This document shows positions 18,524-36,315 of a stretch of DNA of 36,315 nt, piece after piece (the stretch's first letter is position 1; every line of letters begins with the position of its first letter). The DNA is from an uncultured Saprospiraceae bacterium. GTDB taxonomy: Bacteria > Bacteroidota > Bacteroidia > Chitinophagales > Saprospiraceae. The position numbers and the translations under genes are program-made. The notes under the pieces were generated by a model. The model was not told the origin of the DNA, did not search any database, and saw only the letters and a list, made by a program, of their open reading frames with translations. The DNA lies in the NCBI GenBank assembly GCA_937924145.1, contig CALDTJ010000024.1, positions 1 to 36,315 on the forward strand, given 5' to 3'.

Positions 18524-18556
18524 TTTTGCAAATGAGCAAACGTCAAAATCTAGATT

Positions 18557-18610
18557 CGTAAATTTATCTATTCGTGGGGCAAAATATCCCCACGAATAGA
18601 TAAATTTACG
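18557..18610. terminator. Perfect 23-bp hairpin after sulfatase 1
   Basis: Arms 18557-18579 and 18588-18610 are perfectly complementary over 23 bases, starting CGTAAATTTATC and ending in GGGG next to an 8-base loop. There is no T-run, so it may stop transcription only partly or protect the 3' end of the mRNA. It separates sulfatase 1 from the next gene. Confidence 0.65.
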
Positions 18611-18661
18611 GATTTAGGTGTTGACAACATATTAGACTTAATTCTTAAATACAACATATCT

Positions 18662-35348: not shown

Positions 35349-36083
35349 ATGATAAGAGACGACAGAATACAACTCAACGAACGTTTTATCAATGTATTCA
35401 AATTATTGGAAGAGCGTGGTGATATAGTCCTTAATGACCGAGGCGGTAAAGGCATGGGGGATTTTGCCAACAAAATCTTAGGTAATAGAGCTTATGGACA
35501 TATTGTTCGTGCTTTCCTAAATCCTAATGATAAAAGAGTTATTGACTACCGTCACGCAAAAACACTTTGTAAAGTGTATGGTGTCAATGAAAACTATTTA
35601 CTGGATGGAAAAGGGACTCCTTTTGGTTTTGATTTACCTAAAAGTAATGCAGATGCTGATTTAGGAAAAGGCATTGGTAATATTCTTTATACTTCTACTA
35701 GTGCTTTTGCAGGTACGGCAGTCGAGGCTGGTAGTTTTGCTAGCGAAGACAATGAATATTTTGCTATTCCTGGTGTCGCAGGCGGTGGCTTAGTTGCTTT
35801 TCCTATTGATGGTAATTCAATGGAGCCTGTTATTCAAGATGGAGACATGGTAATTTGCCGTGAAATCTCTAGCTTGAAAGAAGTTCGAGAGAATGAGATG
35901 TATGCTGTAAAAAGCAATGGTACTCTTTGGATCAAGTATGTACAATTAGTACATGACCATAAAGGTAGAATTGCGAAATTAAAGTTGATTTCTGCTAACT
36001 ATTTGGAATTCGATCCTTTTGAAGAAGAAGTAAACTCTTATACTCGATTATATAAAGTAATTCGTAAGATTAGTGCGGTCTAA
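35349..36083 (+). CDS. S24/LexA-like transcriptional repressor
   Basis: This is a 244-residue regulator. The N-terminal 95 residues are a helical DNA-binding domain of XRE/C1 type (FINVFKLLEERGDIVLND, then FLNPNDKRVIDYRHAKTLCK, VYGVNENYLLDGKGTPFG), and the C-terminal 110 residues are an S24 LexA-like peptidase domain. The catalytic dyad fits S157 in FPIDGNSMEPV and K196 in LWIKYV, 39 residues apart (37 in E. coli LexA). An Ala-Gly bond at A121-G122, 36 residues before the serine, is placed like the LexA self-cleavage site, so RecA-stimulated or spontaneous autocleavage is possible. It is not close enough to call LexA; it could be a stress or element-derived regulator. A MITE-like element begins 19 bases after its stop. 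Confidence 0.88.
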   Translation: MIRDDRIQLNERFINVFKLLEERGDIVLNDRGGKGMGDFANKILGNRAYGHIVRAFLNPNDKRVIDYRHAKTLCKVYGVNENYLLDGKGTPFGFDLPKSNADADLGKGIGNILYTSTSAFAGTAVEAGSFASEDNEYFAIPGVAGGGLVAFPIDGNSMEPVIQDGDMVICREISSLKEVRENEMYAVKSNGTLWIKYVQLVHDHKGRIAKLKLISANYLEFDPFEEEVNSYTRLYKVIRKISAV

Positions 36084-36102: not shown

Positions 36103-36240
36103 TGAATTATGGTTCTTAGACAAATACTGTGGACTATCAGCGGGTCACTTCAAGTGCCCCGCTGATTTTAACAAAATTACGGGGGCACTAGAAGTGACCC
36201 CGTAATCCAACCACAGGATTTGTCTAAGAACCTGAATTAT
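36103..36240. mobile_element. MITE-like element, 122 bp with 22-bp terminal inverted repeats and 8-bp direct repeats
   Basis: Terminal inverted repeats at 36111-36132 and 36211-36232 match in 21 of 22 bases (outer end GGTTCTTAGACAAAT). They are flanked immediately by TGAATTAT at 36103-36110 and 36233-36240, which looks like a target-site duplication. Inside are two 31-base hairpins, 36136-36166 and 36176-36206, whose central 19 bases are near-exact inverted copies (GGGTCACTTC core). No coding frame is present, so it would depend on a transposase elsewhere. Confidence 0.7.
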
Positions 36241-36248
36241 TTACAATC

Positions 36249-36314
36249 AAAAAGGTTGTTAATTGTTGATTTATTGGGTTTAATTACTGATAACAGATAA
36301 TTGACAACCTTTTT
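36249..36314. terminator. Possible long-loop terminator at the window edge
   Basis: AAAAAGGTTGTTAATT (36249-36264) pairs with AATTGACAACCTTTTT (36299-36314), a 16-bp stem with one wobble around a 34-base loop, ending in Ts. It would serve the S24 repressor gene, but the window stops here. Confidence 0.5.
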
Positions 36315-36315
36315 T

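What the first reader, a model, noticed from the sequence alone, without database searches (positions are those of the whole stretch)
36103..36240. Small non-autonomous mobile element with target duplication
Seen directly: 22-bp terminal inverted repeats with one mismatch, bounded exactly by an 8-bp direct repeat TGAATTAT. The two internal hairpins are inverted copies of one core. This is the architecture of a miniature inverted-repeat transposable element, and it sits just after a repressor gene. Mobility is inferred, because no second copy is in the window.
Basis: partly seen in the sequence, partly recalled or inferred. Interest (0 to 1): 0.6.

Follow-up and report, generated by a model that had tools for sequence, protein, structure and literature searches.

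The report
Jumping mini-element with ISL3-type ends
This is a real 122-base jumping element with no gene of its own, one of several recent copies in a Saprospiraceae genome, with ends like those of the ISL3 transposase family and a pair of common hairpin repeats inside; it is a new family of a known kind of element.

Summary
Window 36111-36232 is a 122-bp element with 22-bp terminal inverted repeats (21/22 match) between two TGAATTAT copies. The same genome holds five further full-length copies, each with its own perfect 8-bp duplication. One is 100% identical to this copy. The host is a Saprospiraceae MAG. The terminal repeat occurs in 38 of 248 sampled Saprospiraceae genomes (26 of 112 genera); the reversed-pattern control gives none. 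Among 73 elements bounded by it, 43 have an exact 8-bp duplication and at most 3 an exact repeat of any other length from 3 to 13. Their interiors fall into 18 dissimilar groups, mostly hairpins. A 5'-truncated ISL3 transposase in a relative ends next to a 19/22 match to this repeat, so ISL3 is the likely mobiliser. The two inner hairpins are not specific to the element: they are an abundant covarying REP-like repeat that also occurs alone, so the element is a MITE carrying a REP-like doublet. No intact transposase with exactly these ends was found. ISL3-type MITEs are already reported in Microcystis, so this is a new family of a known kind.

The parts
36103..36110 (.). left copy of the 8-bp target-site duplication TGAATTAT
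   Evidence: other copies have different TSDs
36111..36132 (+). left terminal inverted repeat, 22 bp, GGTTCTTAGACAAATACTGTGG
   Evidence: same repeat family in 38 of 248 Saprospiraceae genomes
36136..36166 (+). left inner hairpin, REP-like unit (core GGGTCACTTCAAGTGCCCC)
   Evidence: unit repeated across the genome
36176..36206 (-). right inner hairpin, the same REP-like unit in opposite orientation
36211..36232 (-). right terminal inverted repeat, 22 bp, one mismatch to the left one
36233..36240 (.). right copy of the 8-bp target-site duplication TGAATTAT
35349..36083 (+). neighbouring gene (not part of the element): 244-aa S24-peptidase-type repressor; the left TSD begins 20 bp after its stop codon
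   Evidence: PF00717, E 1.1e-10

Best explanation
A 122-bp non-autonomous DNA transposon (MITE) of a Saprospiraceae bacterium. Its 22-bp ends are of ISL3 type. A DDE transposase of the ISL3 family, supplied in trans, most likely binds them, moves the element and makes an 8-bp staggered cut whose repair leaves the 8-bp duplication. Between the ends it carries two head-to-head copies of a REP-like hairpin that also exists elsewhere in the genome without the MITE ends, so the hairpin pair travels as cargo. Shown: exact ends, several copies at different sites with different TSDs, identity between two copies at different sites (so recent movement), and a related ISL3 transposase relic with nearly the same end. 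Inferred: ISL3 transposition in trans, and how the hairpin pair came to be inside.
For: Multi-copy with distinct perfect TSDs; a 100% identical copy at another site. The TIR occurs across Saprospiraceae with zero control matches. In 73 TIR-defined elements whose right end was chosen by TIR alone, 43 have an exact TSD of 8 bp and at most 3 an exact repeat of any other length from 3 to 13, with 39 distinct TSDs. The one intact ISL3 transposase in the genome lies in an IS with TIR GGTTCTTTGACAATTTTTGCAAA, sharing its first 13 bases with the MITE consensus, and an 8-bp TSD TCAATTAT read from two contig ends. A truncated ISL3 transposase in relative G062 (PF01610 E 1.8e-28) ends 5-14 bp from GGTTCTTAGACAAATCTCGTGG, 19/22 to the MITE consensus and the best of 6725 GG-starting 22-mers in the ISL3 loci. 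Other Saprospiraceae ISL3 elements have GG(C/T)TCT...GTGG-like ends and 8-bp TSDs. Absence at one orthologous gene pair in a relative.
Against: No intact transposase with exactly these ends was found. The resident intact IS has only 16/22 identity to the TIR consensus, and genomes rich in the TIR can lack an ISL3 match (G001: 52 TIR hits, no PF01610 match). Co-occurrence of TIR and ISL3 among 248 genomes is weak (8 shared, Fisher P 0.064). No clean same-sequence empty site was available, because relatives are only about 75% identical in coding flanks. These are draft contigs.
Confidence: 0.87

Rival explanations
1. The element is a REPIN or BIME (REP doublet) spread by a RAYT (Y1 HuH transposase), and the outer inverted repeats are merely its extended stem.
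For: The inner units are abundant inverted hairpin doublets with covarying stems and a conserved stem mismatch. The genome has two Y1_Tnp genes.
Against: 8-bp TSDs and 22-bp TIRs are not features of REPIN movement as far as I know. The TIRs occur in many genomes with wholly different interiors. Neither Y1_Tnp gene of this genome, nor any Y1_Tnp locus found in the genus, is flanked by this REP core.
Confidence: 0.04
2. A MITE mobilised by a DDE transposase of a family other than ISL3 that also makes 8-bp duplications.
For: No intact ISL3 element with exactly these ends was found, and TIR-rich genomes without an ISL3 match exist.
Against: The end sequence and 8-bp TSD resemble ISL3 elements of the same bacterial family, and an ISL3 relic has nearly the same end.
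Confidence: 0.08
3. A fixed structural element (terminator or regulatory RNA of the repressor gene), not a mobile one.
For: It lies just after the stop codon of a gene and folds strongly.
Against: Copies lie next to unrelated genes with different TSDs. The terminator scan finds no T-tract terminator here. No Rfam family reaches its gathering score.
Confidence: 0.01

Closest known systems
ISL3-family MITE of Microcystis aeruginosa (187 nt, ends GGCTCTTCG, 8-nt direct repeats; PMC11448079)
   Same: Short element, ends matching an ISL3-family IS, 8-bp duplications, stem-loop interior.
   Different: Different host phylum and sequence. There ISL3 transposases with matching ends are present in the genome; here only a truncated relic with nearly matching ends was found. 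The interior here is a genomic REP-like doublet.
ISL3-family insertion sequences (for example ISPpu12a, 24-bp IR and 8-bp DR, PMC4133298; the resident IS of this genome on C354)
   Same: GG(T/C)TCTT-type ends of about 22 bp, 8-bp TSD.
   Different: The element has no transposase, and its TIR differs from the resident IS beyond base 13.
REPINs / REP doublets (PMC3116915)
   Same: Inner part: two inverted hairpin units, many copies.
   Different: No RAYT with this repeat was found; the doublet is enclosed in TIRs with a TSD; only dozens of units in one genome and a few in a congener.

Membership tests
MITE (miniature inverted-repeat transposable element) | short, no coding capacity, terminal inverted repeats | tested here: met
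   122 bp, 22-bp TIRs, 21/22 match; no ORF of 100 aa or more there, and too short for a transposase
MITE (miniature inverted-repeat transposable element) | dispersed copies with target-site duplications | tested here: met
   six copies including this one with perfect distinct 8-bp TSDs
MITE (miniature inverted-repeat transposable element) | ends shared with an autonomous element in the same or a related genome | tested here: inconclusive
   an ISL3 relic with a 19/22 end in a relative; the intact resident IS has 16/22; no intact element with exact ends
MITE (miniature inverted-repeat transposable element) | transposition observed | not testable with these tools
   needs an experiment; an identical copy at a second site argues for recent movement
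ISL3-derived element | GG(C/T)TCTT-type termini of about 22 bp and 8-bp TSD | tested here: met
ISL3-derived element | DDE transposase PF01610 associated with these ends | tested here: inconclusive
   truncated transposase beside a near-identical end in G062; no intact example
REPIN / REP (inner hairpins only) | abundant palindromic units, often as inverted doublets | tested here: met
   42+50 matches against 0 control; doublets and singlets; stem covariation with compensatory changes
REPIN / REP (inner hairpins only) | cognate RAYT gene flanked by the same repeat | tested here: not met
   none of the Y1_Tnp loci of this genome or genus carries the core; the assembly is 91% complete
REPIN / REP (inner hairpins only) | GTAG or CGTC tag at the foot of the hairpin | tested here: not met
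   no such conserved tag seen by eye in the 71 units listed (tag classes from the title of PMC3733652)

The most novel reading that the evidence does not exclude
ISL3-type MITEs of Saprospiraceae act as general carriers: one conserved pair of ends repeatedly acquires unrelated hairpin repeats from its hosts (here a REP-like doublet without a visible RAYT) and spreads them, so palindromic repeats are amplified by a DDE transposase rather than by a HuH transposase.
Probability: 0.3. Interest if true: 0.55.

Novelty: new member of a known kind. Interest (0 to 1): 0.38.

Why it matters
It settles a tool-free guess with copy, TSD and relative data, and shows that one terminal-repeat family runs through many genera of Saprospiraceae with many dissimilar interiors. 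If the carrier reading holds, it offers a route by which REP-like hairpins can spread without a REP-associated transposase.

Tried and rejected
A mistyped TIR pattern (TGTCTTAGAACC) gave nothing useful. Search for a transposase ORF directly inside exact TIRs among 116 GTDB stretches: none found. Rfam: only sub-threshold matches. Terminator role: no T-tract terminator by the scan. RAYT link to the inner repeat: not found. Pfam on a badly framed reference failed and was repeated in frame. The literature search for Saprospiraceae MITEs returned one bioreactor paper, not followed up. Co-occurrence of TIR and ISL3 over 248 genomes is only suggestive. Five joined-flank empty sites were prepared, but only the C298 one was searched, as it used the last genome search.

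Full report
Check of the observation. The sequence at 36103-36240 is exactly as described: TGAATTAT, a 22-bp repeat, two hairpins, the 22-bp repeat inverted with one mismatch, TGAATTAT. It folds far better than shuffles (z -14). It is the only place in the window with both a 22-bp inverted repeat (at most 1 mismatch) and matching 8-bp flanks, and 60 resampled windows gave none.

Copies. A search of the window's own assembly (7.0 Mb, 654 contigs) found the full element in several other contigs. Five complete copies have perfect 8-bp duplications of their own: C298 AGAATAAT, C75 AAAAATCA, C572 AAAAATAA, C38 AGAATTAA and C250 AAAAACTT. The C75 copy is 100% identical over 122 bp, which argues for recent movement. 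C338 and C429 appear to be two contig ends over one further copy with an imperfect duplication (6/8), and C57, C518 and C45 are truncated.

Distribution. The host belongs to Saprospiraceae by inference: the end pattern in the GTDB contigs fell almost wholly in Saprospiraceae MAGs, with a few records titled only Bacteroidetes, Bacteroidia, bacterium or Treponema. In 248 sampled genomes of the window's family the end pattern (up to 1 mismatch) occurs in 38 genomes and 26 of 112 genera, up to 52 times in one genome (G001), with zero matches of the reversed control pattern in every genome. The window's own element at full length was found only in its own genome among the 61 genomes searched.

Target duplication. 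From the GTDB stretches I took 73 elements, choosing the right end by terminal repeat alone. An exact direct repeat of 8 bp flanks 43 of them; exact repeats of any other length from 3 to 13 occur in at most 3. The 43 duplications are 39 different sequences and are 92% A+T, against 63% for the window. Lengths run from 53 to 443 bp, with a strong mode at 110-112. Interiors fall into 18 groups with no detectable similarity between groups; none resembles the window's interior. Most interiors fold into hairpins or nested hairpins.

Mobiliser. The genome has one intact ISL3 transposase (PF01610 and PF14690). It lies on C354 in a 1276-bp element with ends GGTTCTTTGACAATTTTTGCAAA; its right flank and the left flank on contig C335 share TCAATTAT. 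These ends share the first 13 bases with the MITE consensus but differ beyond (16/22). Other Saprospiraceae ISL3 elements have ends such as GGCTCTTCGCCATATTTAGTGG (TSD AATTTTTT), GGCTCTATGCTAAATCGTGTGG (TSD AATAAGAA; 17/22) and GGTTCTTTATGATTTTACGTGG. In relative G062 the C-terminal part of an ISL3 transposase (37-42% identical to full-length ones, PF01610 E 1.8e-28) ends 5-14 bp from GGTTCTTAGACAAATCTCGTGG, 19/22 to the consensus, the best among 6725 GG-starting 22-mers in the ISL3 loci. This ties the end sequence to the ISL3 family, though through a relic. No intact element with exactly these ends was found, and TIR-rich genomes without an ISL3 match exist. ISL3-type MITEs with 8-nt duplications are already described in Microcystis (PMC11448079), and ISPpu12a of the ISL3 family makes an 8-bp duplication (PMC4133298).

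The inner hairpins. The core GGGTCACTTNNAGTGCCCC is much more abundant than the MITE: 42 forward and 50 reverse matches (some palindromic units count on both strands) against 0 in the control, 7+7 in G001, and almost none elsewhere. It occurs alone and as inverted pairs with varying spacers, many without MITE ends. In the 71 sequences collected by pattern the outer stem stays paired (about 0.9 to 0.99 per pair over eight positions next to the core) through compensatory changes (A-T/G-C/T-A, C-G/G-C/A-T), while register shifts drop overall pairing from 0.81 to below 0.6; a T.C mismatch in the stem is kept (a few units are listed in both orientations). None of the Y1_Tnp loci of the genus carries this core, so the usual REP partner was not seen.

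Empty site. The two genes flanking the C298 copy are neighbours in G005 (74% and 77% identity) with only a few bases between them and no element. Because the intergenic DNA is not alignable, this shows absence, not a clean empty site.

Reading. The best account is a MITE with ISL3-type ends, carrying a REP-like doublet, recently active in this genome. The mobiliser is inferred. Whether the doublet entered the MITE, or the MITE ends formed around a doublet, is open. Three cases in relatives where related elements differ by an inner hairpin block (L206/L217 vs L199, L178 vs L117, L148 vs L207) show that interiors change, but the last pair comes from one MAG and could be assembly variation.

Noticed in passing
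window 36212-36315: The last 104 bases of the window are identical to an internal stretch of contig C57, whose element is truncated and differs upstream. The left TSD of the window matches the right one, so the window junction looks genuine, but the overlap may reflect duplication, recombination between copies or assembly.
   Followed up: partly
L078 (G000:C60) and L079 (G000:C484): Two Y1_Tnp (RAYT-like) genes flanked by other palindromic repeats (for example TAGTCCCGTTAGGGACTA near CGGTAGAAA), not by this element's core.
   Followed up: no
L073 (G000:C431:1624-1752): A 129-bp element with the ends of the resident ISL3 (GGTTCTTTGACAATTTTTGCAAA) and no transposase: a second MITE-like derivative in the same genome, without a clear 8-bp duplication.
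   Followed up: partly
window 36249-36314: A 16-bp inverted repeat (AAAAAGGTTGTTAATT / AATTGACAACCTTTTT) just beyond the element.
   Followed up: no
window 18554-18613: A near-perfect inverted repeat with a short loop.
   Followed up: no
L332 (G007:C527): Between the orthologues of the C298 flanking genes lies a stretch of tandem GGGTATCGGGTACTAGGTTT-like repeats and other inserted sequence.
   Followed up: no
L207 and L148: Two contigs of one MAG carry an element with identical near flanks and TSD, with and without the inner hairpin doublet.
   Followed up: partly
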